Positions 27,482-43,143 of a stretch of 64,000 nucleotides of DNA are shown in pieces. The first letter of the stretch is position 1, and each line of letters begins with the position of its first letter. The notes beneath the pieces are model-generated. The model saw only the letters and a list, made by a program, of their open reading frames with translations, was not told the origin of the DNA and did not search any database. The DNA lies in NCBI GenBank assembly GCA_016196755.1, contig JACPXC010000001.1, positions 124,001 through 188,000 of the forward strand, in the 5' to 3' direction. Made by a program: the position numbers and the translations under genes. This stretch comes from Elusimicrobiota bacterium. Lineage in GTDB: Bacteria > Elusimicrobiota > Elusimicrobia > UBA1565.

Positions 27482-28324
27482 CTACGGGCGCCGCTCGCGC
27501 GGCTCGCGGGCGGCGGGAGGCTTGGTCCCGTAGGTCTGCTCCGGGCCGGGGAAAGCCGCGGTGCGCACGTCGCCCGACCAGCGCTTGATGGCGTCGAGCA
27601 TCTGGGGGCGCAGGTCGGCGTAGCGCTTGACGAACTTGGGCGTGGGCCCCTGGCCCATGCCCAGGAGGTCGTCGACGACGAGGATCTGGCCGTCGCAGCC
27701 GGCCCCGGCGCCGATGCCGATGGTCGGGACCGAGAGCTTGCGGGTCACCTCGCGGGCCAGGTCCTCGGGGACGCATTCCAGCACGATGGCGAAGACGCCG
27801 GCCCCCTCGAGGATGCGCGCGTCGGTGACGATCTTCTCGGCGTCCTGGGGACGCCGGCCCTGGACCTTGAAGCCGCCCAGCTTGTTGACGGCCTGGGGGG
27901 TGAGCCCGAGGTGGCCCATGACCGGGACGTTGATGCGCAAGAGCTCCTTGACGACCGGGGCCACTTCGAGGCCGCCCTCGACCTTGACCGCCTCGGCTCC
28001 GCCCTCTTTGACGAGCCGGCCGGCGTGACGGAGGGCCTCGCGGGCGTCGAGCTCGTAGGAGAGGTAAGGCATGTCGGCCACGAGAAGCGCCCTCTCGAGC
28101 CCGCGGCGGACCGCCTTGACGTGGTGGAGCATCTCGTCGACCGTGACGGGGATCGTGTTGGCGTAGCCCAGCTTCACGTTGGCCACCGAGTCGCCCACGA
28201 GGGCCACGTCGACGCCGGCCTCGTCGAGGAGGCGGGCGGTCGGGGCGTCGTAGGCGGTCAGGGCGACGATGCGCTCGCCCTTGCGCTTGAGCTCGCCCAG
28301 GCTGGAGGTGGTCACCTTGGTCAT
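27482..28324 (-). CDS. panB: 3-methyl-2-oxobutanoate hydroxymethyltransferase
   Basis: 280 residues. Transfers a hydroxymethyl group from methylenetetrahydrofolate to 2-oxoisovalerate, the first committed step of pantothenate synthesis. Diagnostic motifs: VALTAYDAPTARLLDEAGVD, VGDSVANVKLGY, EGGLEVAPVVKELLRINVPVMGHLGLTPQ (quoted in parts), VLECVPEDLA, TIGIGAGAGCDGQILVVDDLLGM. It is the first gene of the operon. A TACAAT -10 lies 10 nt before the ATG. Confidence 0.97.
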   Translation of the reverse strand: MTKVTTSSLGELKRKGERIVALTAYDAPTARLLDEAGVDVALVGDSVANVKLGYANTIPVTVDEMLHHVKAVRRGLERALLVADMPYLSYELDAREALRHAGRLVKEGGAEAVKVEGGLEVAPVVKELLRINVPVMGHLGLTPQAVNKLGGFKVQGRRPQDAEKIVTDARILEGAGVFAIVLECVPEDLAREVTRKLSVPTIGIGAGAGCDGQILVVDDLLGMGQGPTPKFVKRYADLRPQMLDAIKRWSGDVRTAAFPGPEQTYGTKPPAAREPRERRP

Positions 28325-28334
28325 GCGAGACGAG

Positions 28335-28340
28335 ATTGTA
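28335..28340 (-). promoter_or_regulatory. -10 element of the panB operon
   Basis: Minus-strand TACAAT ending 10 nt before the panB ATG, so the leader is at most a few nucleotides. It lies in the short gap between the HEPN stop and panB. Confidence 0.45.
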
Positions 28341-28351
28341 CTACTTCGCGT

Positions 28352-28753
28352 CTACCCTAGGATCGACTCGGCCCAGCTCTGGAAGCGCTCGAGATGCTTC
28401 CATAAATGAGCGGCCTTCTTCTCCGTATAGGCTTCTCCACTATACGACACGATGCTTTTCTCCGCGAGTATCTCTCGAAGGCGGCTCACGGCCTTCTTGC
28501 TCGCATCGTCAGATCTGACTACCTCTTCGAGGAGGTCGGCTGCGGCCATGTGGTCGCCTCCTCCGCTCTTGGCTCCGCTTACCCTGATGCAAACCGCATC
28601 AGCGTAGGCGATCGCGGAGGTGGCGATAAGGACGCCGGCGGAATTCCATGCCCTGCACTTCATATCCCTTTCGGCGCTCACGAAGAATTGCTCCGCGATC
28701 CGGCGATAATCGTCGGCCTTGGAACGTACCTGCGAGAGCCGGTAGGACGTCAG
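28352..28753 (-). CDS. HEPN-domain protein, partner of the MNT nucleotidyltransferase (probable CTG start)
   Basis: 133 residues if started at CTG 28753, which overlaps the stop of the MNT gene as CTGA. The nearest conventional start is GTG at 28681, and using it would remove the first HEPN helix (YRRIAEQFFVSAERDM). The rest is helical: WNSAGVLIATSAIAYADAVCIRV, then helices ending WKHLERFQSWAESIL. HEPN proteins pair with minimal nucleotidyltransferases as type VII-like toxin-antitoxin systems, the HEPN part being an RNase or RNA binder. The usual RX4-6H motif is not obvious here, so toxicity is uncertain. Confidence 0.72.
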   Translation of the reverse strand: MTSYRLSQVRSKADDYRRIAEQFFVSAERDMKCRAWNSAGVLIATSAIAYADAVCIRVSGAKSGGGDHMAAADLLEEVVRSDDASKKAVSRLREILAEKSIVSYSGEAYTEKKAAHLWKHLERFQSWAESILG

Positions 28754-29364
28754 AGGAGTTCCTCGAGTCTGGACGGGAGAAGGTCGATGCCTTCACGGCG
28801 GATGTTCGAGATCAGCGGGCTCCCGGCCTTCAACTGATTCCTGAGCTCTTGACGCGTGAAAACGATGGGAGAGATGCGCAGGTCATGGTCTCGCTTGAAC
28901 TGAGAGGCTAAGTCGCGGGCCTCTTGAGCCAGCCGAGCTTTCGAGTTGGGGGGGGCGACGAGTAAAAGGTCGATGTCGCTTCCGAGTTCAGCGTCGCCGC
29001 GCGCCACGCTTCCGAAGATCGTCGCGGAGAGCGCTCGGCCGCGGAACCGGTCGCTGATGGCCGACCTCAGCCCGGACATGATCCTGCGTTCCGCCTGGAG
29101 CAAGGGAACCAGGGCTTCTTTGACCAAAACGCGCTGGAAGCGCAATCTTACCAGCTGCGTCTTGCCTGACCCCATGCGCGAGATTACACCGGCCTCTTCG
29201 AGCCTGCGCAGGGCTACCGCGCAAGCTTGATGGTTGATTCCCGCCATCCGGGCTGCCGCCCGCCCGCTCATGCCTTCGCGCGAATCCAAGAGCGCGCGGA
29301 GAATCGCGATATGGCTCGGCGCCGAGAATATCGCGTCCAGCGGAGCGAAGAGCAGATGCTTCAT
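28750..29364 (-). CDS. Minimal nucleotidyltransferase with N-terminal HTH
   Basis: 204 residues. The N-terminal 70 residues are a winged helix-turn-helix ([26 protein letters not shown]). The catalytic domain has [19 protein letters not shown], the G-S-x(n)-D-x-D signature of the nucleotidyltransferase fold. It is followed by HEPN with CTGA overlap, the MNT-HEPN arrangement in which the MNT antitoxin may modify the HEPN protein. The HTH and the inverted repeat inside its own promoter predict autoregulation. The ATG overlaps the folK stop (ATGA), yet it has its own strong promoter. Confidence 0.88.
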
Positions 29365-29813
29365 ATGTCTACTATAACAGACAACTGTCTGTTTTTCAAG
29401 ACAAAAGCGGATGCTAACTCCCGAGCAGGGATAGCCACGAAAGGTCTCTTCCGAGCCAATGGGTGAGGAATCCTCAGCAACGCCGAGCGCAGTCGCCGCC
29501 GGCCGTAAGAAACGATGTCGAGATCCAATGGGCGCGGGCCCCAGCGCCGGCCCGGACGGCGCCCGGCCCTGGCCTCGAGGCGCTTAAGCTCGACGAGGAG
29601 GCTAAGAGGGCGGAAGCTTGTCTCGATCAGCGCCGCCGCGTTGAGATAGGTCCGCTGGCGTCCCGGGCCGATGGGGGCCGAGCTGTAAGCCGAGGAGACG
29701 CGCAAGACTCGCGTGGCGGGCAGCGTCCCTAGGTCGTGGAGGGCCTTGCGCAGGTGGCTCAGGCGGTCGCCCTGGTTCGAGCCCAAGGCGACGACGACGC
29801 GGACCGGCCTCAA
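29361..29813 (-). CDS. folK: 2-amino-4-hydroxy-6-hydroxymethyldihydropteridine pyrophosphokinase
   Basis: 150 residues from TTG 29813. Transfers pyrophosphate from ATP to hydroxymethyldihydropterin in folate synthesis. Motifs: [52 protein letters not shown]. The final 14 residues (from VLKNRQL) are encoded by the MNT promoter and operator and do not resemble folK, so the normal C-terminal tail was probably replaced when the module arrived. The catalytic core is complete. Its start overlaps the upstream membrane-protein stop (TTGA). Confidence 0.93.
29371..29399 (-). promoter_or_regulatory. Promoter of the MNT-HEPN module
   Basis: Minus-strand TTGAAA (29399-29394), 17-nt spacer, TATAGT (29376-29371). 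The -10 ends 6 nt before the ATG at 29364, predicting a leaderless mRNA. This AT-rich promoter lies inside the folK 3' coding end. Confidence 0.8.
29376..29393. promoter_or_regulatory. Operator between -35 and -10 of the MNT-HEPN promoter
   Basis: Inverted repeat aacagaca-ac-tgtctgtt (8-bp arms) filling the promoter spacer. It is the likely site for the HTH domain of the MNT protein, by position. Confidence 0.7.
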
Positions 29814-30190
29814 CCGCGGTCCCTAGCCGCCCGCTCGGCACGGCGCCACTCCGCGCGCAGGCACCAGAGGACGACGGCGCAGAGCAGGACGGCCGCGATA
29901 TTGCCGGCCCAGCCCTCGAATGCTCCCCGATCCCAGGGACCCTCGTAGCCCAGCGAAGCGAGCGAGGCGCCGCCGGCCAAGCGCAGGACGGCGCCGGCCT
30001 TGACGGCGATCCCGCCTTCGAAGACGAAGGCGGTCCAGAGCAGCCAATACAGCGCCCCGGCGGCGGCCATGACCGAGACCAGGACGCCGCCTATGTGGAC
30101 GGGGTCGTACAAAGGCTCTCCGGCGGGCGGCTCATCGTCGAAGGACTCGACCAGGACGCGCAGCCGCGTCAAGGCGTCTCGGACCGTCAT
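29810..30190 (-). CDS. Small membrane protein between dapB and folK
   Basis: 126 residues, no family recognised. There are two hydrophobic segments near 40-62 ([22 protein letters not shown]) and 95-112 ([21 protein letters not shown]), with a third weaker one between. The ATG at 30190 overlaps the dapB stop (ATGA) and the end overlaps folK (TTGA), so it is translated as part of a dapB-orf-folK operon. A longer version from 30244 is possible but would overlap dapB for no reason. Confidence 0.75.
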
Positions 30191-30870
30191 CGCGCCAAAA
30201 GGTCGGACATGCCGTAGAGGCCGGGACGCCGGCCCGCCAGCCAACGCGCGGCGCGCAGGGCCCCGCGCGCGAAGACCTCGCGCGAGTGGGCGCGGTGGAC
30301 GAGCTCGAGGCGTTCTCCAGGGCCGGCCAGGACGACGGTGTGGTCCCCGGCGACGTCGCCGACGCGCAGGCTCAGCGCGGGGGCGGCCATCCCACCGGCG
30401 GCCAGGGCCGCCTGCAGCCGCTTGGCGCTGCCCGAGGGCGCGTCCTTCTTGGCGGCGTGGTGGATGTCGATGACCGCGGCCTCATAGCCGGGCAGGGCCG
30501 CGGCGGCGCGGCGCGCCAGGTCGGCCAGCACGCTCATCCCCGGGCTCATGTTGGGCGCCCAGAACACCGGTACCCGGCGCGCCAGCGTCTTGAGCCGCCG
30601 TCCCTGGGCCGCGGAGAGGCCGGTGGTCCCGCTGACGACGGCCACGCGCCGGGCCGCGGCGGCGGCGGCAAATCCCAGCGCCGCGGCGGGAAGGCTGAAG
30701 TCGATGAGGACTTCGGCCTCGTCAAGCAGCTTGAGCAGGAGTCCGTCGGGGGTTCCGCGGCCGACCCCGCCTATGACGCGGAACCGCCGGTCGCCCTGCG
30801 CGGCGGCGGCCACCGCCCGCCCCATGCGGCCGCCGGCGCCGGACAGGACGATGCGGAGGGGGGAGGCCAT
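30187..30870 (-). CDS. dapB: 4-hydroxy-tetrahydrodipicolinate reductase
   Basis: 227 residues, slightly short for the family. Reduces hydroxy-tetrahydrodipicolinate with NAD(P)H in the lysine/diaminopimelate pathway. Nucleotide-binding SGAGGRMGRAV starts the protein. VLIDFSLP and VVSGTTGL follow, then WAPNMSPGMSVL, and the catalytic stretch IDIHHAAKKDAPSGSA carries the His pair and Lys. The C-terminal oligomerisation part is compact. A TATAAT box ends 6 nt before the ATG. Confidence 0.95.
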   Translation of the reverse strand: MASPLRIVLSGAGGRMGRAVAAAAQGDRRFRVIGGVGRGTPDGLLLKLLDEAEVLIDFSLPAAALGFAAAAAARRVAVVSGTTGLSAAQGRRLKTLARRVPVFWAPNMSPGMSVLADLARRAAAALPGYEAAVIDIHHAAKKDAPSGSAKRLQAALAAGGMAAPALSLRVGDVAGDHTVVLAGPGERLELVHRAHSREVFARGALRAARWLAGRRPGLYGMSDLLAR

Positions 30871-30876
30871 GCGGGG

Positions 30877-30882
30877 ATTATA
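30877..30882 (-). promoter_or_regulatory. -10 element of the dapB operon
   Basis: Minus-strand consensus TATAAT, 6 nt before the dapB ATG. With a 17-nt spacer the -35 would be GTAACA. A leaderless transcript is predicted. Confidence 0.65.
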
Positions 30883-30973
30883 CCGAAGGTATCAGCAGAT
30901 GTTACGTCCCGGTACCCCTGCGTAGGCCTTGCCAGGCGGGACGGCCGCGGTTATCGTATCATGCCGACCCTAT

Positions 30974-32998
30974 ATGGGAGCCGCAGAAGACACCCCAGGT
31001 TCCAGGCCGCGCGTCCCTGCCGAGGACCGGCCCGCGCGCCTGTGCGAGGTCGTGGAGCGCAGTTGGCATGCGCTGGCTTTCGACCACTTCGAGGGCCTCT
31101 TCGTCATCGTCACCCTCCTGGTCCTGGGCGCCATCCTGCACTTCATCGACCAGAAGATCTCCCTGCTCGACCTATATTTCGTGCCGGTGCTGGTCGCCGG
31201 CGTCTTCATGGACGCGCGCCGCGCCGTCCTGGGTGCTATCCTGGCCGTGGCCTGGGTGTCGTTCTTTGCCGTCATCGACCCGGAAAGCTTCTCCCAGGAC
31301 ATGATGACGTCGCAGGGCCTGTACCTGCACCTGCTGAGCTGGGGTTCCCTGCTCGTCCTGACCGGGGCGATCACGGGCCGGATGGCCGAGCGCCTCCAGG
31401 AGCGCTACCGGCGCGCCGCCGAGGCCCTGGCCGAGACCAGCCGCCTGCGCGAGGACCTGGCCAAGGTCAACGCCCGGCTCGAGGAGAAGAACCTCACCCT
31501 CGAGGTCACCAAGAGCAAGGTCGAAGCCGTCCTGTACGCCTCGATGGACCCCTACGTCGCCAAGCTCATCATCGACCGGCGCCTGCGCAACGAGAAGCGC
31601 CTGATCACCGTCCTGTTCGCCGACCTGGCCGACTTCACCCGCACCTCCGAGGAGAGCGCGCCCGAGACGGTCATCGAGGAATTGAACCGCCTCTTCGCCG
31701 AGATGGAACCGGCCGTCGCCCGCTTCCGCGGCCACGTCGACAAATACATCGGCGACGGGCTGATGGTCGAGTTCGGCGTGCCCCTGCCCAGCGAGAACCA
31801 CGCGCTCCTGGGCGTGCTCGCCGCGGTGGCGATGCAGAAGCGCATGCACGAGCGGCGTTTTCCGTGGAAGATGCGCATCGGGGTGGCCACCGGCCAGGCC
31901 TTGGTCGGGCTGGTCGGCTCGGACAACAGGAAGAACTACACGGCCATCGGCGACCCCGTGAACCTCGCCTCGCGCCTGCAGGGCCTCTGCCCTCAAGGGG
32001 TGGTCTGCGTCGACGAGCCCACCCATGAGGCCATCAAGCGCTTCTTCAAGACCCGCCGGGTGCGCGACGGCCTTAGCGCCGAGGACTCCAAGGACATCGA
32101 GGGCCGGCTCGAGCTGACGGTGCAGACGCTGGAGGGAGCGCCGACGGCCAAGCTGGCGATGGAGGCGGCCGACCTGGCCAGCCGGCTGGGGGACATGCAG
32201 GCCGCGCTCAAATGGCACCGCCGCGCCCTGGAGCTCGACCCCGCCTTGCGCGCGCCCATCGAGCGGGCCATCACCACGGCGTTCTTGACCGGGCCGGACC
32301 GCGACGTGGCGGTGCGGGGCAAGCGCGAGCGCCAGGCGGTCTTCGAGGTCCAAGGGCTCAGGGACCCTATCGACGACGCCAAGCGCGTGCCTCCCGCGGC
32401 CGTCGAGGTGTTCCGTCAGTTCGCGCGCGAGCTGTGGCTGGCCGAGGAGCATCTGCTCGGCGTGGAGGCGGTCTCGGGCTCCATCGGCCATGGACAGGTG
32501 ACGGCGGCCCTGAGCGGGGCGCTGGCGCGCGCGGCCGGCCTCGACGACCGGCAGTGCAAAGAGACCTTCATGGCGGGCTATTACCACGACATCGGCAAGC
32601 GCGCGGTCCCGGACTTCCTGCTGGCCCGCGAGCACCGCATCGACGAGCTGCCCGCCTCGGACCGCGAGCTCCTGCGCTCGCACGTGCTCGAGGCCGAGCG
32701 CACCATCACCGAGTGGGGCCTGCCGCGCTCTCCCGAGGCGATCGAGGCCATCGTCCAGCACCACGAGCGCCTCGACGGCACCGGCTACCCGTACGGCCTC
32801 AAGGGCGCGCAGATCTCGGGGCCGGCGCGGATCCTCGCCATCGCCGAGTCCTACGAGGACCTGACCGCCTGGCGCCCGTCGCGGGCGCCGCTGACCGCGC
32901 GGGCCGCGTTGGCCGAACTCCGGGCCGAGGCGGAGCGCGGCCGGCTCGACGGCCCTCTGGTCGCGCGCCTGGCGTCCGTCCTGACTCCCATCGTATAA
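30974..32998 (+). CDS. Membrane class III nucleotidyl cyclase fused to an HD-GYP domain
   Basis: 674 residues from the ATG at 30974 (a longer frame begins at 30929). Three or four membrane helices lie at about 40-135, then a coiled coil to about 190. The class III cyclase domain at about 208-385 has metal-binding Asp217 (LFADLADFT) and Asp261 (YIGDGLMVEFG), and Asn330/Arg334 (GDPVNLASRLQ), so it looks active. A short TPR-like linker follows. The HD-GYP domain at about 500-640 has His538-Asp539 (YYHDIGK), His570, His596-597 and GTGYP (HHERLDGTGYP). The late metal Asp of HD-GYP (normally in aDvyDA) is Glu625 here. Product (cAMP or cGMP) and cyclic-dinucleotide activity cannot be told from sequence. 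Confidence 0.88.
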   Translation: MGAAEDTPGSRPRVPAEDRPARLCEVVERSWHALAFDHFEGLFVIVTLLVLGAILHFIDQKISLLDLYFVPVLVAGVFMDARRAVLGAILAVAWVSFFAVIDPESFSQDMMTSQGLYLHLLSWGSLLVLTGAITGRMAERLQERYRRAAEALAETSRLREDLAKVNARLEEKNLTLEVTKSKVEAVLYASMDPYVAKLIIDRRLRNEKRLITVLFADLADFTRTSEESAPETVIEELNRLFAEMEPAVARFRGHVDKYIGDGLMVEFGVPLPSENHALLGVLAAVAMQKRMHERRFPWKMRIGVATGQALVGLVGSDNRKNYTAIGDPVNLASRLQGLCPQGVVCVDEPTHEAIKRFFKTRRVRDGLSAEDSKDIEGRLELTVQTLEGAPTAKLAMEAADLASRLGDMQAALKWHRRALELDPALRAPIERAITTAFLTGPDRDVAVRGKRERQAVFEVQGLRDPIDDAKRVPPAAVEVFRQFARELWLAEEHLLGVEAVSGSIGHGQVTAALSGALARAAGLDDRQCKETFMAGYYHDIGKRAVPDFLLAREHRIDELPASDRELLRSHVLEAERTITEWGLPRSPEAIEAIVQHHERLDGTGYPYGLKGAQISGPARILAIAESYEDLTAWRPSRAPLTARAALAELRAEAERGRLDGPLVARLASVLTPIV

Positions 32999-32999
32999 T
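32994..32999 (+). promoter_or_regulatory. -10 element of the speD operon
   Basis: Consensus TATAAT, 8 nt before the ATG at 33008 and overlapping the stop region of the cyclase gene. No Shine-Dalgarno; a leaderless or near-leaderless start is predicted. Confidence 0.6.
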
Positions 33000-33007
33000 C
33001 GTCCCCG

Positions 33008-33970
33008 ATGTTCTTCGAGGGAGCCGAGAAGAAAGCCGAGCTCGTGGTCGTGCCCGGGAGCCCGTCGCTCCGCGCGCTGGGCCGCCCGTTCTGGGAAGGG
33101 GTGGTGCTCAAGGCCAGGGCGAAGGTACTCTCCACGCTCTCCAACGCCGACTGCGACGCCTACCTGCTCTCCGAGTCGAGCCTTTTCGTCTGGGACGAGC
33201 GCGCCCTCCTCATCACCTGCGGGCGCACGACCCTGGTGCCGGCCGTGCTCGAGCTCGTGGACAGGGTCGGCAGCGACAAGGTCGCCGCTCTGATCTACGA
33301 GCGCAAGGACCAGATCTTCCCGGAGTACCAGCCGACCAACTTTCTTGACGATGCCAGGGTCCTGGGCGCCGTGCTGCCCGGCAAGGCCGTGCGCTTCGGG
33401 GAGGAGGACGAGCACCACGTCTGCCTGTTCCACAGCGACCGGGGGTTCAAGCCCGACACCCGCGACGTCACGCTCGAGATCCTCATGCACGGGATCGACG
33501 CGCGCGCCCGCGCGGCCTTCTTCAAGGGCCCCGAGCACACCCTCGAGTTCATCCACCGCGAGACCGGGGTGCGGGGCATCGTCGACGGCTTCGAGGTCGA
33601 CGACCACGTCTTCGAGCCCACCGGCTACTCGCTCAACGCCCTGCGCGGGCGCGAGTACTACACGATCCACGTCACGCCCCAGCGGGTGGGCTCCTACGTC
33701 AGCTTCGAGACGAACCACTTCTTCAATGAAGACTTGGACAAGGTCGTCACGCGCGTTCTCGACATCTTCCGGCCGTCCTCGGTCGACGTGCTGGCCTTCT
33801 CGCGAGAGCTCGACCCGGTCACCGTCCCCAAGCCCTACCTGCCGCGCCGCTCGGTGGTCGACCGCCTGGGCTGCGGCTACGGCGTGCAGTTTTTGAGCTT
33901 CTTTAAGCCGCAGTCCCGCCCCTCCAAGGCGCAAGCCCTCGAGGTGCCGGAGCTCTCGCCGCGTGGCTAA
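33008..33970 (+). CDS. speD: S-adenosylmethionine decarboxylase, eukaryotic (AMD1-like) type
   Basis: 320 residues, about the size of eukaryotic enzymes and much longer than the usual bacterial SpeD. It makes decarboxylated AdoMet, the aminopropyl donor. Landmarks match the AMD1 family: FEGAEKK at the N-terminus, self-cleavage site YLLSESSLFVW (Ser57 would become the pyruvoyl group), ITCGRTTL (Cys71), and EYYTIHVTPQ...SYVSFETN carrying the processing His. It overlaps speE by 8 nt. Function is well supported because spermidine synthase follows directly. Eukaryotic-type forms are uncommon in bacteria. Confidence 0.93.
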   Translation: MFFEGAEKKAELVVVPGSPSLRALGRPFWEGVVLKARAKVLSTLSNADCDAYLLSESSLFVWDERALLITCGRTTLVPAVLELVDRVGSDKVAALIYERKDQIFPEYQPTNFLDDARVLGAVLPGKAVRFGEEDEHHVCLFHSDRGFKPDTRDVTLEILMHGIDARARAAFFKGPEHTLEFIHRETGVRGIVDGFEVDDHVFEPTGYSLNALRGREYYTIHVTPQRVGSYVSFETNHFFNEDLDKVVTRVLDIFRPSSVDVLAFSRELDPVTVPKPYLPRRSVVDRLGCGYGVQFLSFFKPQSRPSKAQALEVPELSPRG

Positions 33971-34820
33971 GCTTCCTCCTCTTAAGGAGTGGGTCGAGGA
34001 GGTCCAGGACGGCGCCTACGGGATGAAGTGGCGCGTCAAGGCGAGGCTCTTCGAGGGCAAGAGCCCGTTCCAGTCGGTGGCGGTCTACGACACCGTCAGC
34101 CACGGCCGGATGCTCCTCATCGACGGCCTGCTGATGACCTCGGAGCGCGACGAGTTCGTCTACCACGAGATGATCGCCCATGTCCCGCTGTTTCTGCACC
34201 CGAGGCCGCGGCGCGTCCTCGTCATCGGCGGCGGAGACGGCGGCACGGTGCGCGAGACTCTCAAGCACCCGACCGTCGAGTCCGTGACGCTCGTCGAGAT
34301 CGACGGGATGGTCGTCGACGCGGCGCGCGAGTATCTGCCCTCGACGTCCGCCTGCCTGGCCGACCCGCGCGTCTCGGTCCGCATCGAGGACGGCGTCAAG
34401 TTCATGGCCGCGCATGAGAGCGAGCCATTCGACGTCATCCTCATCGACTCGACCGACCCCATCGGCCCGGCCCAGCCGCTCTTCGGGCCGGGATTCTACG
34501 CCGACGTCAAGAAACGCCTCTCCGCGGACGGCATCGTGGTCGCCCAGGGCGAATGCCCTTTCTACCGGCTCGACGTCCAGGCCGCCCTTCGCAAGGTCGT
34601 CGCGGGCGTCTTCGGCTCGGGGACGCTCTACAACTACCACAACCTGACCTACCCGGGCGGGCTCTGGTCGTTTGTCATCGCCTCGAAGCTCCCGCGCGAC
34701 CTCGCGGCCCCCGACCCTGAGCGGGTCGCGGCGCTCCAGGCCGGACTGTCGTACTACAACCTCGAGACGCACCGGGCGGCCTTCGCCCTGCCCGAGTTCA
34801 TGAAGCGAGGTCTCCGCTGA
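33963..34820 (+). CDS. speE: Spermidine synthase
   Basis: 285 residues from GTG 33963. Transfers the aminopropyl group of decarboxylated AdoMet to putrescine. It has the N-terminal beta domain (YDTVSHGRMLLIDGLLMTSERDEFVYHEM), nucleotide site VIGGGDGGTVRE, acidic VEIDGMVV, catalytic Asp in LIDSTDPIGP, and GGLWSFVIAS. It overlaps speD by 8 nt and touches glpF at a TGATG junction. A different amine acceptor is possible but not indicated. Confidence 0.95.
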   Translation: MAKLPPLKEWVEEVQDGAYGMKWRVKARLFEGKSPFQSVAVYDTVSHGRMLLIDGLLMTSERDEFVYHEMIAHVPLFLHPRPRRVLVIGGGDGGTVRETLKHPTVESVTLVEIDGMVVDAAREYLPSTSACLADPRVSVRIEDGVKFMAAHESEPFDVILIDSTDPIGPAQPLFGPGFYADVKKRLSADGIVVAQGECPFYRLDVQAALRKVVAGVFGSGTLYNYHNLTYPGGLWSFVIASKLPRDLAAPDPERVAALQAGLSYYNLETHRAAFALPEFMKRGLR

Positions 34821-35553
34821 TGTCTCCCTACCTGGCCGAACTGATCGGAACCATGATCCTCGTCGTGCTCGGCAACGGCGTGGTCGCCAACGTCGTGCTG
34901 AATAGATCCAAAGGGCAGAACTCCGGCTGGATCGTGATCACGGCGGGCTGGGCCTTCGCCGTCACCGTGGCGGTCTATTGCGTGGGTTCCTTCAGCGGCG
35001 CGCATCTGAATCCGGCGGTGACGCTGGCGATGGCGGCGCTGGGGAAGTTCGACGCCGGCCTGGTGCCGGGCTACGTCGCAGCACAGCTCACCGGCGGGTT
35101 CCTCGGCGGCGTCGTGGTCTGGCTGGCGTATCTGCCGCACTGGGCGGTCACCGAGGACCAGGGGGGCAAGCTCGCCGTCTTCTGCACCGCTCCAGCCATC
35201 CGCCATCCGGCCTCGAATCTCCTCGCGGAGGTCATCGGCGCCTTCGTCCTGGTTCTAGGCGTGCTCGCCATCCTGCGTCCCGAGAACCTCGTCCCCAACT
35301 CCGGCTTCGACAAAGGCTTCGCCCCGGCTCTGGTCGGCGTCCTGGTCTGGTCCATCGGCTTGTCTCTGGGCGGGGCGACGGGCTATGCGATCAATCCCGC
35401 GCGCGACCTGGGGCCGCGCCTTGCCCACGCCGTCCTGCCGATCGCGGGAAAGGGCGGCTCCGACTGGGGCTACGCCTGGGTGCCCGTCGTCGGCCCCATC
35501 ATCGGGGGGGGCCTCGGCGCGCTGTTCTTCGGCGCGCTGTTTCCACACGCGCG

Positions 35554-35557
<4 letters not shown>
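34820..35557 (+). CDS. glpF: Glycerol facilitator (MIP/aquaporin family)
   Basis: 245 residues with six membrane helices and two half-helix loops, NPA in [12 protein letters not shown] and NPA in [12 protein letters not shown]. The Asp after the second NPAR is typical of aquaglyceroporins rather than water-only channels. Followed with ATGA overlap by glycerol kinase, which traps entering glycerol as glycerol-3-phosphate. Coupling to polyamine genes upstream (TGATG junction) is unusual and suggests shared transcription. Confidence 0.95.
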
Positions 35558-37035
<1,478 letters not shown>

Positions 37036-37225: not shown

Positions 37226-38170
37226 CTAGCGCCGCAGCTTCGGCGCCGGCAGCACCCGGCCGACCTCGTCGCGCCCGAAGCGCCAGCCCAGGCTCAGCAG
37301 GTGCGACATCCCGAGCTCGCCATAGGGCGTCAGCGCGTAGTCGACGTTCAGCGCCCCCCACTCGATGCCGAAGCCGCCGGTGACGCCGAGTCCGGCGTCG
37401 TTGCGGCCGTTGTAGCCGACCCGCAGGGCGATGAGGTCGTTTAAAGGGGAGGTCAGGCCCGCCTGCATCACCAGCCGCCCGGTCTCGTCGTGATTGGCGT
37501 CGGCCAAGAGGGCGAAGGGGCGGTCGAGGAAGTCGAAGACCACGGCCGAGCCCCAACGCACGTTGAGCGGCAAAGACTCGCGCGCGGACTGGAACTTGGT
37601 CGCCGGGCCGGCGTTCTGGATGGACACGCCGATGCGCACGAGCGGGGCGTCCATCAGGACGGCCTGCGCGCCGACGTCGGCGGAGTACGCCGAGCCGGTC
37701 GTCTGGTCGATCGACTCTCGCGTGTGCCGCAGGGCCGCCCCGACGGAGACCTCGTCGGTCAGCGGCAGCCCTATCCCCAGCGCTGCGCTCAGCGCGTACG
37801 GCGAGAACGTGCCCAGGCCCGTCCCGTCGGGGTTCGACAGCGTGCGGCGGTGGAGTTGGCCGTAGCGCAGGTAGTCGACCGTGGCGCCCCAGCCCGGAGC
37901 CCCGACGGCGATGTGCTCGCGCGAGACGTCCTGGAAGTGGGAGGTGTGCATCAGCGAGGCTCGCGGACCCTCGAGCGTGGCCAGGCCCGCGGGATTATAA
38001 GCCAGGACGTTGGGGTCGTCGGCGCCCGCCCCGAAGGCCCCGCCCAAGGCTCCCTGGGCCGCGCCGGCGTCCAGAAACAGGAGCTCGAAGGGCCGGGAAC
38101 CGCCGTAGCCCCGGGCGCCGGCGGGCACGGCCAGGAGTATGCAGAGCGCCGCGGCGAGCAGGCCCCTCAT
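37226..38170 (-). CDS. PorV/PorQ-like outer-membrane protein (UPF0164 family)
   Basis: 314 residues with a signal peptide (MRGLLAAALCILLAVPAGARG). The opening FLDAGAAQGALGGAFGAGADDPNVLAYNPAGLA is characteristic of the PorV/PorQ group. It is followed by amphipathic beta strands compatible with a 14-stranded FadL-like barrel. PorV proteins shuttle cargo of the type IX secretion system at the outer membrane. The upstream, overlapping gene (38167) encodes a giant protein ending in a sorting-domain-like module, so the two likely form a carrier/cargo pair. No other T9SS component is in the window. Confidence 0.85.
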   Translation of the reverse strand: MRGLLAAALCILLAVPAGARGYGGSRPFELLFLDAGAAQGALGGAFGAGADDPNVLAYNPAGLATLEGPRASLMHTSHFQDVSREHIAVGAPGWGATVDYLRYGQLHRRTLSNPDGTGLGTFSPYALSAALGIGLPLTDEVSVGAALRHTRESIDQTTGSAYSADVGAQAVLMDAPLVRIGVSIQNAGPATKFQSARESLPLNVRWGSAVVFDFLDRPFALLADANHDETGRLVMQAGLTSPLNDLIALRVGYNGRNDAGLGVTGGFGIEWGALNVDYALTPYGELGMSHLLSLGWRFGRDEVGRVLPAPKLRR

Positions 38171-41100
38171 CGGATCACCGCCAGCTTCTCGACGCGGGTG
38201 TTGCCGTCCGGGCCGGTGACGACGAGGAAATAGACCCCCGAGGCCGCGTCGCGCCCGTCGCCGTTGCGCCCGTCCCAGCGCCGCAGGCCGCCCTGGGCGG
38301 GGCCCGGCGCCTCCCAGACCAGGGAGCCGGCCACCGTGTAGATCGACAGCCGGGACTCGGGCGGCAGGTTGTCGAAGATGATCCCCGAAGTGGGGTCGCC
38401 CGCGCTCCAGGCCTTGCCGTCGTCGGTGTCGGCGTTGTTGGGCCGCCAGGGGACCGGATAGACGCGCAGGGTGCCGAGGTCGGCGGCGGCCGGCGAGAGC
38501 AGGGCGAAGAGCGTGAAGTGGCTGCTGGCCCCGGTCAGCGTCCCGCCGTCGTCTTGCGTGAAGACGCTCGGGAAGTCGAAGCGCCAGCGCCCGGTCAGCG
38601 GGTCGAAGAACGCGATGAGCAGGTTGTCGGAGCGGGTCTCCGTGCCGTCGACGCGGCGGTCGCCGTCGACGTCCAGGCGGCCGAAGCTCAGCGTGGCGCA
38701 GCGGCCGTTGGTCAGGACGGCCTGCCCGCTCTCCAGGGAGACGTCGCGGAAGATCCCCGAGGCCGAGAAGGACGAGGGCACGAGCGGGACGGCGGCCGGC
38801 GCGCCGTCGATGCGCAGGACGTCGCTTTCGGCCGCCACGCAGGCCGTGGCCAGCGCGACCCGGGTGGTGAAGGCCTCATCGGGATCGGTGGCCTCGGCCG
38901 CGGCCGGAGCGGCGCGGTAGACCTTGACCCGGGTCAGCACCCGCCCCGAGGACAGCCGGGTGGCCTGCTGGTCGGGGTCGGTCGGGTCGACGAGCACCGT
39001 GCCGACGGGGGGGGCCGCGTCGTCGGTCCCGGAGGCGTCGCGCGCCACGGCGCGCACCTGGTAGCGGCCGGGGGTCAGGGTGGTGACGTCCCAGAGGGTC
39101 GTGAAGGGGGCGTCCACGGCCGGGTTGGGGCGCGCGGCCTCGGCCGCGGCCATGTCGGCCCAGGGCGCCGCCGACGAGGACCGGAACTGAAACGCCACTC
39201 GGCGCACCTCGCCCGCGCTCCCGGCGGCCACCCCGGCGGCCACCGTCAAGCGGTCGCCCCAGACTTTCGCGCCGCCCGGCGGGGAGCGGATGAAGGTCGA
39301 GAGCGGCGAGCCGGTGGAGAGGGCGAGCGCGGCGGCTAGCACGTCGACGTTCTTCTCGGAGATCCCGCGCTCGTCGACCACGCGGATGCCGAAGGTGTAT
39401 GTGGCGTCGGGCGTCAGCGGCGCGCTCGTGTAGGTGGTGGCCGAGGCCGCCGTGCTGGCTAGCAGGACGCCGTAGTCGACCGTGCCGGTTGCGGAGTCCG
39501 AGAAGAGTTCGTAACGGGCCGCCGTCGTCGACGGGGATATCCCCCAGGAGAGGCGGATGCGCGCCCCGCCGACCGGCACGGCCAGGAACGCGGAGACGCG
39601 CTGGGGGAGGCGGCCGGCTATGAAGGTCGAGAGGGCCGCGTCATAGTCGGTGGTCAGGCCGTCGCCGTTGGCCGCCCGCACGCGCAGCGAGTAGGTGGTG
39701 TCGGCCAGGAGATTGACGATGACGCCCAGCGTGCCGGTGCCGGCCGTCACTTGGAGGAAGGCGCCGCCAGGGGTGGAGCGTTCGACCAAATAGACCGTGC
39801 GGCCGGGGTTCCCATTGGCCGACCACGACAGCGTGACGCTGTCGACGAAGACCGCGGCCAGCGCGCTGGCGGTCGGCGGCGCGGCCAGCGTGAAGACGGT
39901 GGTCGCGGCGGAGAGCGCCCCCAGTCCGGTCCCGCCGATGGCGCGCAGGCTGAGGCCGAAGGGGGTGTCGGTGGACAGCGACGTCTCGACGAAGGCGGCG
40001 GCGGCGGTCGTGGCGATGACGACGCCGTCGGAGGCGCGGATGACGGCGTAGCCCGTGACGGCCGGACCCGCGGTGCTGTTCCAGGTCCAAGACAGCGACG
40101 ACACGCCGAGCGCCGCGCCCGCAGGGGCGCCCAGCGCCCCGGGCAGGGTCTGGGTCGAGGCTAGGGCGAAGATGCTGCCTACGGAGTCGCCGTTGAAGGC
40201 CCGCACGCGGACGAAGTGGGAGGTGCCCGCTGCCAAGCCGATGAAGGTCGTGGCGGTCGCCGTGAAACCGGCGCCCAGGGCGACCGGGGTGGAGACCGCC
40301 AACGGGAAGCCGACCGTCGAGAGCGAGACCTCGTAGCGGGTCCCGGCCGGGTTGCCGCCAGCGGCCCAAGAGAGGGCTATCGTGCCGGTGGATAGACCGG
40401 AGGCGGTGAAGCCGGCGGGTACCGCGGCCTGGGTGAAGACCGTGGCCGCGGCCGACAGCGCGCCTTCGGCCGAGGAGTCGTAGGGACGGACCCGGATGCC
40501 GAAGGCGGTGTTGGTCGAGAGTCCGGTCAGCGTGAAGCTGCTCGCCGCCGCGTCGGCCAATTGGGTCCCGTCGGCCGCGGCATGCACCCGGTAGCGCGCC
40601 GCCGGGCCGCTGGTGTCCCAGGTCCAGGTGATCGACGAGGTCCCCAGCGCGGAGCCGGCCAGGCCGCTGAGCGGGGCCGGGACGGTGACGGTGGTGAAGA
40701 CGACCGAGAACGGCGACGGGATGGCGTTGCCGTTGAGCGCCCGCACGCGAAACGAGTAGGTGGTGCCGGCCGCGAGGGAGAGGATGTCGGTCGTCGTCGC
40801 GGTCAGGCCGTCGGCGAAGGCGACCGGGGTGGATACGTCCGCCGCGAAGCCGTCGGTCGAGGCCGTGACTTCGTAGGGCGTGTTGCCCGGGTTGCCGGCC
40901 GAGCTCCAGCTCAGCGTCGCGCTCGCCAGGAAGACCGCGTCGGCGGAGAGCGCGGAGGGGGCATTGGCCAGCGTGAAGGCGTTGAGCTCGTTGGAGAACG
41001 CCGAGAGCAGGCCGTCGGGGGTGTTGCGGGCGCGCAGGCGCACGAAGTAGGCCGTGTTGGGGTTGAGTCCCGTGATCGTGATCGCCTGCGACCCGCCGAC

Positions 41101-43143
41101 CCCGGCCGAAGAGGCCGTCGGCGTGGAGGCGCCGAGGTTCAGCGCCCCGGGCAGGGTACCCGAGGAGACCACGAAGTCGGTCTCGTTGTCGGAGCCGTCG
41201 GTCAGGGTCAGCGAGAGCTCGGCCGTGGAGAGCGCCACGAGCGCCGTCGCGGAGGGCGCGGCCGGCAGGGAGTTGACGGTGAGCGTCACCGTGGAGATCG
41301 CCGCCGGGATGACCGTACCCGAGGTGATGAGGACGGCCCGGTACTGGAAGAAGCGGTCGAGCAGGCCGTCGGAGTGGGACGGGTTGACGGTCTCCCCGCC
41401 GTCGGGGTCGCGGTAGGAGTCCGTCGCCGAGACCGGCCCGAGCCAGGCGGTCCAGGTCCCCGGCTGGCCGGAGCCGTCGCTGGGCGCGGTGCGGAGCTGG
41501 AACTGCGAGGTGGTGCCGGGCTGGAAGCTGCCGTTCCAGCGCAGGCGGCGCAGGACGTTGCCGTCGCGCCCGGAGTCGAAGGCGCTCGAGGTCAGCGTGC
41601 CGCTGGGGGCCGTCTGGCCGTAGGCGATCGAGACGTCCGAGAGGGCCGGGCTCGTGGCGACGTTGACGGTCGTGAAGGTGGCCGAGTACTGGAGATAGCG
41701 CGTGGCCCCAAGGGCCGTCAGCGAGGCTCCGTTGGCGAAAGCCGCGAAGGCCCCGCCGTTGGACCAGGTGGGACCCGGGGTCGCCACGTTGCCGGCCCTA
41801 AACGACAGGCCTAGGGCCGTCGAGGTGTCAGCCTGGACGGCGGGGGTCCAGTCGGCGGCCCCCAAGAGCGAGAGGTTTCCGGTGTCGAACACCGACGACT
41901 GGTAGACGCCCGAGGCGATCAGGATGTTCTCGAGCACGTCGCTGAAGCCGGCGGCCGTTCCGGTGCCGCCGAATACGAACAGGCGCAGGCGGTCGGTGTC
42001 AACGGCCGCCGCGGCGCGCGCGCGGGCGGCGGGGAGGACCGGGCCGCGGGCGGCAACGGTCCGGGGGCCGGGGTCGTACTCGAGGACCTGAGCGCTCGGC
42101 GTCCCGGCGTTCTCGCCGCCATAGAGGTATATCCTGCCGCTGAAGGGGTGGCGCGCGGCCGTCAGCGCCGCCATCGGGCCGGGGAGGGGGGACAGGAGGG
42201 TCGTCGAGCTGCCCGCTGGGTGAAAGGCAACCACGTCGTTGAGATAGGTTCCGGTGGCGTTGCCGCCGAATACCAATACGTCGCCGCTGGCCGGGTCGAA
42301 GGCCGCGGCCGTCTCGATGCGGCCGGAGGGGAGGGTCGTGGCGACGTTGACGACCGCTTCGGAGGTTGGATCGAAGTCGACGATGCTGGCCAGGTGCACG
42401 CCGACCCCGAACTGCATGCCGCCGAATACGTATATCCGGCCGGTCGACGAGACGTAGGCCGCCGAGGTATGCGAGCGGGCGGTGGGCAGAAGGCCGACCG
42501 AGGACTGGACCGAGTGGGCGATGGGGTCGTACTTGATTATCTGGGCCTGCGCGAAGCCGCCGGAATCGAATCCGCCGAACACGTAGATCTTGTTGGTGGC
42601 TGGGTCGTAGGCCGCCGAGGTGCCGGCGCGGGCGGTCGGCAGAGCATCGGCAGAGACGGCCACCGAGTCGGCGACGGGGTCGTACTCCAGTACCTCGTTG
42701 GTGAGCGTGCCGTCGGCCTTGCGGCCCCCGAAGAGGTAGATGCGCTTCGTCTGAGGATGGTAAGCGGCGGCCGTCAGCTCGCGGGCCTGCGGCAGTTGGG
42801 CGGCGCGGACGACGACCGACTCCTGGAGCGCCAGCGACAGGAACGCGCCCGTGCCCGAGCCTTGCAGCGTCGTCGAGCTTAGCAGGCTCCCGGCCCGCGC
42901 GAAGCCCGCGTCGCCGCCGCCGTCGTCGGTCTGCAGCCAGACGCGCGGGATCCCGGTCAACGACCGGATGGCCGTGCTCAGCGAGACGACGTTGCCGTCC
43001 TGGGAGTCGTAGGCGGTCCAGCCGCTCTGGACGCTGGTGGTCGACGCCGAGGCGGCGCCGGCGCTCCAGTCGCGCTGGACGTAGTCGATGTCGGCGGCAC
43101 GGGCCGGGGCCCAGAGCAGCAGCAGAAGCGGCAGAAGGCGCAT
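38167..43143 (-). CDS. Giant secreted Kelch-propeller / fibronectin III protein with T9SS-like sorting domain
   Basis: 1658 residues. Signal peptide MRLLPLLLLLWAPARA. About six Kelch blades lie at 90-400 (for example HPQTKRIYLFGG, DPATNKIYVFGG, SSTGRIYVFGG), making one closed propeller. A lectin-like stretch follows, then a long series of fibronectin type III domains (repeating LSWSANGNPGRTVY / YSLRVRAANGDG themes) to about 1290. The C-terminus (LRVYPVPWRPNN, LSIYTVAGSLVWE, SGVYFLVVTGPDG) is a FlgD/T9SS type A-like sorting domain. It is probably surface-exposed or released and binds glycans or proteins. It overlaps the PorV gene (ATGA). Confidence 0.9.
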   Translation of the reverse strand: MRLLPLLLLLWAPARAADIDYVQRDWSAGAASASTTSVQSGWTAYDSQDGNVVSLSTAIRSLTGIPRVWLQTDDGGGDAGFARAGSLLSSTTLQGSGTGAFLSLALQESVVVRAAQLPQARELTAAAYHPQTKRIYLFGGRKADGTLTNEVLEYDPVADSVAVSADALPTARAGTSAAYDPATNKIYVFGGFDSGGFAQAQIIKYDPIAHSVQSSVGLLPTARSHTSAAYVSSTGRIYVFGGMQFGVGVHLASIVDFDPTSEAVVNVATTLPSGRIETAAAFDPASGDVLVFGGNATGTYLNDVVAFHPAGSSTTLLSPLPGPMAALTAARHPFSGRIYLYGGENAGTPSAQVLEYDPGPRTVAARGPVLPAARARAAAAVDTDRLRLFVFGGTGTAAGFSDVLENILIASGVYQSSVFDTGNLSLLGAADWTPAVQADTSTALGLSFRAGNVATPGPTWSNGGAFAAFANGASLTALGATRYLQYSATFTTVNVATSPALSDVSIAYGQTAPSGTLTSSAFDSGRDGNVLRRLRWNGSFQPGTTSQFQLRTAPSDGSGQPGTWTAWLGPVSATDSYRDPDGGETVNPSHSDGLLDRFFQYRAVLITSGTVIPAAISTVTLTVNSLPAAPSATALVALSTAELSLTLTDGSDNETDFVVSSGTLPGALNLGASTPTASSAGVGGSQAITITGLNPNTAYFVRLRARNTPDGLLSAFSNELNAFTLANAPSALSADAVFLASATLSWSSAGNPGNTPYEVTASTDGFAADVSTPVAFADGLTATTTDILSLAAGTTYSFRVRALNGNAIPSPFSVVFTTVTVPAPLSGLAGSALGTSSITWTWDTSGPAARYRVHAAADGTQLADAAASSFTLTGLSTNTAFGIRVRPYDSSAEGALSAAATVFTQAAVPAGFTASGLSTGTIALSWAAGGNPAGTRYEVSLSTVGFPLAVSTPVALGAGFTATATTFIGLAAGTSHFVRVRAFNGDSVGSIFALASTQTLPGALGAPAGAALGVSSLSWTWNSTAGPAVTGYAVIRASDGVVIATTAAAAFVETSLSTDTPFGLSLRAIGGTGLGALSAATTVFTLAAPPTASALAAVFVDSVTLSWSANGNPGRTVYLVERSTPGGAFLQVTAGTGTLGVIVNLLADTTYSLRVRAANGDGLTTDYDAALSTFIAGRLPQRVSAFLAVPVGGARIRLSWGISPSTTAARYELFSDSATGTVDYGVLLASTAASATTYTSAPLTPDATYTFGIRVVDERGISEKNVDVLAAALALSTGSPLSTFIRSPPGGAKVWGDRLTVAAGVAAGSAGEVRRVAFQFRSSSAAPWADMAAAEAARPNPAVDAPFTTLWDVTTLTPGRYQVRAVARDASGTDDAAPPVGTVLVDPTDPDQQATRLSSGRVLTRVKVYRAAPAAAEATDPDEAFTTRVALATACVAAESDVLRIDGAPAAVPLVPSSFSASGIFRDVSLESGQAVLTNGRCATLSFGRLDVDGDRRVDGTETRSDNLLIAFFDPLTGRWRFDFPSVFTQDDGGTLTGASSHFTLFALLSPAAADLGTLRVYPVPWRPNNADTDDGKAWSAGDPTSGIIFDNLPPESRLSIYTVAGSLVWEAPGPAQGGLRRWDGRNGDGRDAASGVYFLVVTGPDGNTRVEKLAVIR

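What the first reader, a model, noticed from the sequence alone, without database searches (positions are those of the whole stretch)
30974..32998. One protein with a class III cyclase and an HD-GYP domain
Both catalytic motif sets are present in a membrane protein with a coiled-coil signalling linker. HD-GYP domains degrade cyclic dinucleotides, while class III cyclases make cAMP/cGMP. Their fusion would let one signal make one messenger and remove another, or the HD-GYP might hydrolyse the cyclase product.
Basis: partly seen in the sequence, partly recalled or inferred. Interest (0 to 1): 0.55.

Follow-up and report, generated by a model that had tools for sequence, protein, structure and literature searches.

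The report
Cyclic-AMP enzyme fused to c-di-GMP domain
A membrane protein of an uncultured bacterium joins an enzyme predicted to make cyclic AMP to a domain that binds or destroys another messenger, c-di-GMP; its relatives suggest that the second domain may control the first, which would link the two signals directly.

Summary
ORF 30974-32998 (674 aa) encodes a membrane region, a long helix, a class III cyclase with a complete adenylyl-type catalytic set, a TPR-like insert before the cyclase's last strand, and an HD-GYP domain. The HD-GYP keeps six of eight PmGH metal ligands, has Glu for D305 and lacks E185.
The genome is from Elusimicrobiota: no EAL match, five HD-GYPs, two of them cyclase fusions.
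Full-length relatives: 14 of 340 Elusimicrobiota genomes, 7 of 395 in the phylum of a Syntrophobacterales genome, 1 of 398 in that of a Chitinilyticum genome. In 12 genomes of other lineages, 0 of 108 HD-GYP matches share an ORF with a cyclase.
Of 28 readable family HD-GYPs, nine lost metal ligands, by at least three routes; all nine kept the cyclase metal, Asn and Arg residues. One clade shows the reverse: dead cyclase, intact HD-GYP.
Best reading: an adenylate cyclase gated by c-di-GMP, with hydrolysis retained where the metal site survives. The chemistry is untested.

The parts
30974..32998 (+). Whole gene: membrane region, long helix, class IIIb cyclase with TPR-like insert, HD-GYP (674 aa plus stop)
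31079..31393 (+). Membrane region, residues 36-140, DUF4118/MASE1-like below Pfam cut-offs; three strong hydrophobic segments and a weaker fourth
31310..31543 (+). Long helix, residues 113-190, reaching from the last membrane helix to the cyclase (signalling-helix position)
   Evidence: position compared with PMC1592074 passages
31580..32059 (+). Class III cyclase core, residues 203-362, with D217, K257, D261, T323, N330, R334
32078..32290 (+). TPR-like helices, residues 369-439, inserted before the last strand of the cyclase
   Evidence: (matches to TPR domains at model residues 375-439)
32339..32359 (+). Last strand of the cyclase fold, residues 456-462 (AVFEVQG)
   Evidence: (cyclase chains align up to model residues 460-465)
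32393..32995 (+). HD-GYP domain, residues 474-674; H506, H538, D539, K542, H570, H596, H597, GYP 604-606, I614, E625, R634, R637
33008..33970 (+). Downstream neighbour: eukaryote-type S-adenosylmethionine decarboxylase (PF01536), 9 bases after the fusion; same order in the two other genomes of the genus (L051, L052)
33963..34820 (+). Downstream neighbour: spermidine synthase speE, overlapping the decarboxylase gene

Best explanation
A membrane-anchored class IIIb adenylate cyclase whose C-terminal HD-GYP domain couples it to c-di-GMP. Two chains dimerise through the membrane region and the long helix. The cyclase dimer makes cAMP from ATP. c-di-GMP bound in the HD-GYP pocket changes the dimer geometry and so sets the cyclase rate. 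Where the metal site is intact or nearly so, as in the window protein, the HD-GYP probably also hydrolyses bound c-di-GMP slowly, which would let the switch reset itself. Shown by sequence and models: architecture, residues, folds, conservation and the two patterns of domain decay. Inferred: cAMP as product, dimerisation, c-di-GMP as ligand, the allosteric link and its direction, and residual hydrolysis.
For: Complete cyclase catalytic set with the adenylyl-type Lys/Thr pair; best solved matches by sequence include CyaB (2.5e-24) and CyaC, and Foldseek TM 0.87 to CyaB over the cyclase, with an alignment long enough to span the insert. HD-GYP fold: VIA Z 22.2 (184 aligned, rmsd 2.8) to c-di-GMP-bound DvhD and 21.1 (187, 2.9) to PmGH, tied with PA4781 at 20.8. 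The HD-GYP helices start about 12 residues after the last cyclase strand, so the two are tightly joined. In 9 of 28 readable family HD-GYPs the six-ligand metal set is broken; all nine keep cyclase D217, D261, N330 and R334 (8 of 9 keep K257), the positions of PmGH R314 and K317 stay mostly basic (R or K at 634 in 9 of 9; R at 637 in 8 of 9), Y605 stays in 8 and I614 in 9. No single ligand is lost in all nine (L025 keeps H538 but not D539; the seven L175-L181 keep D539 but not H538; L185 loses only D539 of the six), so at least three separate losses are needed if loss is not reversed. A degenerate HD-GYP that binds c-di-GMP without metal and moves its stalk helices is proven for DvhD (PMC13090378 section 10). 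The genome has 7 GGDEF matches, at least three with GGEEF, and 11 cNMP-binding matches, so both messengers are plausible there.
Against: No activity or binding data. The window protein itself keeps six metal ligands, so a purely receptor-type HD-GYP is not shown for it. One clade (L011, L027) has a dead cyclase and intact HD-GYP, so gating the cyclase cannot be the role in all members. Basic residues at 634/637 are also kept in 10 of 10 degenerate HD-GYPs of this bacterial family outside the fusions, so they may be structural, and PmGH R314A/K317A did not substantially reduce hydrolysis (PMC4159591). Seven of the nine degenerate cases come from one phylum sample. The set 'broken' was chosen by its ligands, so comparing ligand and contact retention is biased.
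Confidence: 0.45

Rival explanations
1. Two-output enzyme: one membrane signal drives cAMP synthesis and c-di-GMP hydrolysis together, with no control of one domain by the other.
For: In 19 of 28 readable family members the six core HD-GYP ligands are intact, and in 17 of these 19 the readable cyclase residues are too. The genome has no EAL domain at E 1e-8, so HD-GYPs are its only recognised c-di-GMP phosphodiesterases, and two of five are these fusions.
Against: HD-GYP metal sites were lost at least three times with the cyclase kept. In the window genus the HD-GYP changes faster than the cyclase (dN/dS 0.34-0.57 against 0.20-0.30, ratios) and the acidic residue 501 kept elsewhere in Elusimicrobiota is gone. 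E625 replaces the D305 ligand, whose change to Ala in PmGH markedly reduced activity (PMC4159591).
Confidence: 0.3
2. The HD-GYP acts on another cyclic dinucleotide, such as 3'3'-cGAMP, rather than c-di-GMP.
For: Some HD-GYPs are cGAMP-specific (V-cGAPs, PmxA; PMC8177086). V-cGAP3 (5z7c) is among the solved matches.
Against: The PmGH guanine-contact positions (R634, R637) are kept, and the genome has several GGDEF proteins with GGEEF. No test for cGAMP synthases was made.
Confidence: 0.1
3. The HD-GYP hydrolyses the cyclase's own product, cAMP, giving a self-limiting pulse.
For: Only that HD-superfamily enzymes of other branches hydrolyse cAMP or cGMP (PMC8177086).
Against: The domain belongs to the HD-GYP branch by Pfam, sequence and fold; the pocket residues match dinucleotide-binding HD-GYPs; the HD-GYP centre is lost repeatedly while the cyclase stays.
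Confidence: 0.05
4. The HD-GYP is only a dimerisation scaffold with no nucleotide ligand in this protein.
For: Faster change of the HD-GYP than of the cyclase in the genus; E185 equivalent absent and D305 equivalent changed.
Against: Six ligands, K542, the whole GYP signature and R634/R637 remain.
Confidence: 0.1

Closest known systems
CyaB of Pseudomonas aeruginosa and CyaC of Spirulina (class III adenylyl cyclases; 3r5g, 1wc1)
   Same: Cyclase fold and catalytic residues; membrane region upstream in CyaB (recalled)
   Different: Their cyclase chains align without the TPR-like insert; no HD-GYP (recalled)
PmGH, PA4781 (HD-GYP c-di-GMP phosphodiesterases; 4mcw, 4r8z)
   Same: HD-GYP fold, six metal ligands, GYP loop, guanine-contact basic residues
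   Different: PmGH has E185 and D305 (trinuclear site); the window protein has Gly and Glu, and a cyclase in front
DvhD of Desulfovibrio vulgaris (degenerate HD-GYP, c-di-GMP receptor; 9rbz)
   Same: Top-ranked structural match of the HD-GYP, tied with PmGH; the relatives L175-L181 resemble it in having lost metal ligands
   Different: DvhD sits behind a PAS domain and signals to the periplasm; here the partner domain is a cyclase, and the window protein keeps six ligands
Bd1971, Lcd1 and Tlr0485 (cAMP-sensing c-di-GMP enzymes)
   Same: One protein linking cAMP and c-di-GMP; Tlr0485 pairs GAF with HD-GYP
   Different: They sense cAMP and change c-di-GMP; here the protein is predicted to make cAMP and the likely flow is the other way

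Membership tests
Class III nucleotidyl cyclase, IIIb type | Pfam PF00211 above its cut-off | tested here: met
   76.3 bits against 21.9
Class III nucleotidyl cyclase, IIIb type | Two metal Asp, substrate Lys and Thr, catalytic Asn and Arg (roles recalled; places read off the alignment with CyaB) | tested here: met
   D217, D261, K257, T323, N330, R334
Class III nucleotidyl cyclase, IIIb type | Cyclase fold | tested here: met
   pLDDT 93.1 model; CyaB TM 0.87 on the target, rmsd 2.0
Class III nucleotidyl cyclase, IIIb type | Synthesis of cAMP from ATP as a dimer | not testable with these tools
   needs an enzyme assay
HD-GYP | HD plus the HHExxDGxGYPx7I signature | tested here: met
   H538-D539 and residues 596-614; PF13487 122.8 bits; signature from PMC4159591
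HD-GYP | HD-GYP fold | tested here: met
   VIA Z 22.2 DvhD, 21.1 PmGH, 20.8 PA4781
HD-GYP, trinuclear E/D-T-G subgroup | All eight PmGH ligands | tested here: not met
   E185 position is G502 and D305 position is E625
HD-GYP | Hydrolysis of c-di-GMP or cGAMP | not testable with these tools
   needs an assay
DvhD-type HD-GYP receptor | Loss of core metal ligands | tested here: not met
   The window protein keeps six of six core ligands; the feature is met in L025, L175-L181 and L185
DvhD-type HD-GYP receptor | Binds c-di-GMP | not testable with these tools
   needs a binding assay

The most novel reading that the evidence does not exclude
This is a family of c-di-GMP-gated adenylate cyclases, found in three phylum-level samples, in which an HD-GYP, catalytic in some lineages and reduced to a receptor in others, directly converts c-di-GMP status into cAMP output within one polypeptide. 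That would be the reverse of the known cAMP-sensing c-di-GMP enzymes.
Probability: 0.4. Interest if true: 0.7.

Novelty: new variant of a known kind. Interest (0 to 1): 0.5.

Why it matters
cAMP and c-di-GMP are two central nucleotide messengers of bacteria, and the direct protein-level links I found in print run from cAMP to c-di-GMP. A protein that carries a cAMP-making domain and a c-di-GMP domain side by side makes the opposite link testable with a single purified protein. The family also offers natural controls: members with a dead cyclase, with a dead HD-GYP, and with both intact.

Tried and rejected
Product hydrolysis by the HD-GYP: rejected as unlikely, see rivals. A family confined to Elusimicrobiota: first suggested by the genome-contig scan (17 of the 80 loci kept hold the fusion, from records titled Elusimicrobia or, in two cases, only 'bacterium'; 63 other loci had a cyclase and none an HD-GYP in the same ORF), then overturned; that scan had used one short cyclase motif. 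The first genome-contig scan found no relative. Plasmids and phages: no place covered 80% of the protein. Phylum of a Calditrichaeota record: 0 of 40, which alone shows little. Gene neighbours outside the genus gave no shared partner among those looked at. No Rfam family at 28000-36000. Literature: ten searches gave no paper, among the titles, abstract starts and passages I saw, that describes a class III cyclase fused to HD-GYP; lists longer than shown were not all opened. One search (Slr2100) found nothing. Limits of the census: searches scored only the best three candidates per genome, so counts are lower bounds; the 12-genome intersection is a small sample, chosen because those genomes hold cyclases like this one; six of the 18 genomes had no HD_5 match and were dropped.

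Full report
What is there. ORF 30974-32998 on the + strand starts with ATG and encodes 674 residues. Pfam finds a class III cyclase (PF00211, residues 209-360, E 3e-21) and an HD-GYP domain (HD_5 PF13487, residues 503-660, E 1.6e-35); the N-terminus resembles DUF4118 and MASE1 below their cut-offs. A whole-chain AlphaFold model was poor in the cyclase (mean pLDDT 72.3); a second model of residues 190-674 from 58 sequences (A2) is confident nearly throughout (mean pLDDT 93.1, pTM 0.89). The Pfam hits are far beyond chance, and the domain order is conserved in relatives.

Anatomy. The cyclase matches CyaB best among solved chains by sequence (2.5e-24) and by fold (TM 0.87 on the target, rmsd 2.0). 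VIA-align matches cyclase chains up to model residues 460-465 and TPR domains at 375-439, so about 70 residues of TPR-like helices sit between the cyclase core and its last strand (456-462). The HD-GYP helices begin at 474. The HD-GYP matches DvhD (Z 22.2), PmGH (21.1) and PA4781 (20.8).

Catalytic residues. Cyclase: D217, K257, D261, T323, N330 and R334 are present. The guanylyl cyclase Cya2 (2w01) has Glu where the window protein has K257 (alignment); Lys with Thr is the adenylyl pattern (recalled). HD-GYP, numbered against PmGH from PMC4159591 (passages read) and the alignment: H506, H538, D539, H570, H596 and H597 match six of eight metal ligands; E625 stands for D305 and G502 for E185; K542, Y605, I614, R634 and R637 stand for K225, Y285, I294, R314 and K317. 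In PmGH, E185A and D305A reduced but did not abolish hydrolysis, while the other ligand mutants essentially abolished it. Elusimicrobiota relatives have Glu or Asp at position 501, one residue before the E185 place; the window protein and its two genus relatives have Ser, Ala and Thr.

Setting. The closest named relatives are Elusimicrobia MAGs. In the window's genome: 5 HD_5 matches, 12 PF00211 matches, 7 GGDEF matches, no EAL match at E 1e-8 and 11 cNMP-binding matches. Three GGDEF ORFs of this genome were seen to have GGEEF (three of the seven matches; another stretch fetched, L172, showed no motif by my pattern, and the rest were not read). Of the five HD-GYPs, two are cyclase fusions (this one and G000:C52, 49% identical over query residues 158-662), two more have the six ligands (L135, L137) and one is degenerate (L136). 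Over the eight genomes of the bacterial family, 13 of 47 HD_5 matches share an ORF with a PF00211 match (my comparison of the place lists; 83 PF00211 matches). The fusion is followed by a SAM decarboxylase and speE in all three genomes of the genus (window, L051, L052) and not in the other loci compared, some of which are short.

Distribution. With alignment A1 (18 fusions), 14 of 340 Elusimicrobiota genomes have a match at E 1e-60 or better (7 of 191 good-quality ones; 7 of 100 genera). In the phylum of a Syntrophobacterales genome (Thermodesulfobacteriota in NCBI) 13 of 395 genomes matched at 1e-45; seven of these hold both domains and six rows are cyclase only. In the phylum of a Chitinilyticum genome (Pseudomonadota) 1 of 398 at 1e-60, and 0 of 40 in that of a Calditrichaeota record. 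As a check on unrelated fusions, I took 18 genomes behind cyclase loci of other lineages: 12 have HD_5 (108 matches) and those 12 hold 73 PF00211 matches; by comparison of the places, none lie in one ORF. The fusion is therefore not common in what I sampled, but the sample is small.

Decay patterns. I compared 29 family members (L006 lacks the end of the HD-GYP and L040 the start of the cyclase). Of 28 readable HD-GYPs, 19 keep all six core ligands and nine do not (L025, L175-L181, L185). All nine keep cyclase D217, D261, N330 and R334; L181 has His for K257. No ligand is lost in all nine, so the losses are at least three (L025, L185 and the L175-L181 group). In the nine, position 634 is R in eight and K in one, 637 is R in eight and H in one, Y605 is kept in eight, I614 and P606 in nine; H538 is kept in two. 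Conversely L011 and L027 have lost cyclase residues (D217, K257, N330; D261 too in L011), lack the TPR-like insert, and keep all six ligands. A tree of the shared part puts the eight from the two other phylum samples on one side and the 19 from Elusimicrobiota on the other (100/99), with L025 the first Elusimicrobiota branch (27 rows, L006 and L040 left out); L185 is a long branch. Cyclase and HD-GYP trees agree on the small clades, consistent with a single fusion, although the cyclase tree, which is weakly resolved at depth, puts L025 with the other group.

Mechanism. The repeated loss of the metal site, with the cyclase kept, points to a role of the HD-GYP that does not need hydrolysis. DvhD shows that a degenerate HD-GYP can bind c-di-GMP without metal, dimerise on binding and splay its stalk helices (PMC13090378 section 10 read). 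As class III cyclases work as dimers with sites at the interface (recalled), an HD-GYP that changes dimer geometry right behind the cyclase could set its rate. I therefore favour a c-di-GMP-coupled adenylate cyclase, with hydrolysis remaining where the ligands survive. Against this: basic 634/637 are also kept in 10 of 10 degenerate HD-GYPs outside the fusions in this bacterial family and in 13 of 24 intact ones, so they do not prove binding; and the window protein's own ligands are mostly kept, so it may still be an enzyme. In the genus, the HD-GYP evolves faster than the cyclase (approximate Nei-Gojobori dN/dS 0.34, 0.49, 0.57 against 0.20, 0.30, 0.22 for the three pairs; ratios computed), yet all ratios are below 1.

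Known systems. cAMP-sensing c-di-GMP enzymes are known: Bd1971 (EAL; PMC6717892 abstract), and Lcd1 (GGDEF) and Tlr0485 (GAF with HD-GYP) as told in the review PMC8846402 (passages). In Xanthomonas a class III cyclase XC_0250 makes cGMP and a linked gene, XC_0249, takes part in the pathway (PMC3770947, start of abstract in the listing). The signalling-helix paper PMC1592074 (passages) describes such helices before cyclases and HD-GYPs separately. The 2005 census PMC1183210 (passages) counts both domain kinds but I saw no fusion there. Galperin and Chou 2022 is known to me only from a reference list and is not held, so the architecture may already be listed there. PMC12943098, PMC9756655, PMC7288161, PMC9239204, PMC13232838 and PMC6416229 were searched for terms only. 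PMC8177086 was read in passages.

Verdict. A real, conserved, sparsely distributed fusion; parts of known kinds in an uncommon combination, with an evolutionary pattern that makes a c-di-GMP-to-cAMP link testable.

Noticed in passing
window 33008-33970: Eukaryote-type S-adenosylmethionine decarboxylase (PF01536, E 2.6e-62; below the TIGR00535 cut-off) in a bacterium, followed by speE; its LLSESS stretch resembles the self-cleavage site of the eukaryotic enzyme (recalled).
   Followed up: partly
window 28750-29364: HTH plus nucleotidyltransferase protein with weak MntA/HalB-like matches between panB and folK; by spacing there is no room for it between the same genes in L051 and L052.
   Followed up: no
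G000:C52:49392-50906 (L021): Second fusion of the same genome, aligning only from the helix before the cyclase onward; its relatives L022, L023, L024 and L010 form a clade whose alignment to the membrane region also fails.
   Followed up: partly
L011:1354-3213 and L027:2669-4531: Fusions with a dead cyclase, no TPR-like insert and an intact HD-GYP; a response regulator gene lies just upstream of the L027 copy (L170:3723-4469).
   Followed up: partly
L136, L139, L142, L144, L147, L153, L157, L164: Conserved degenerate HD-GYP group of this bacterial family (HG, HS or QG for HD; HQ for HH; N for the D of DG), possibly another c-di-GMP receptor.
   Followed up: no
window 38167-43143: 1658-aa protein with Kelch repeats and fibronectin type III domains, with an UPF0164 gene beside it.
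   Followed up: no
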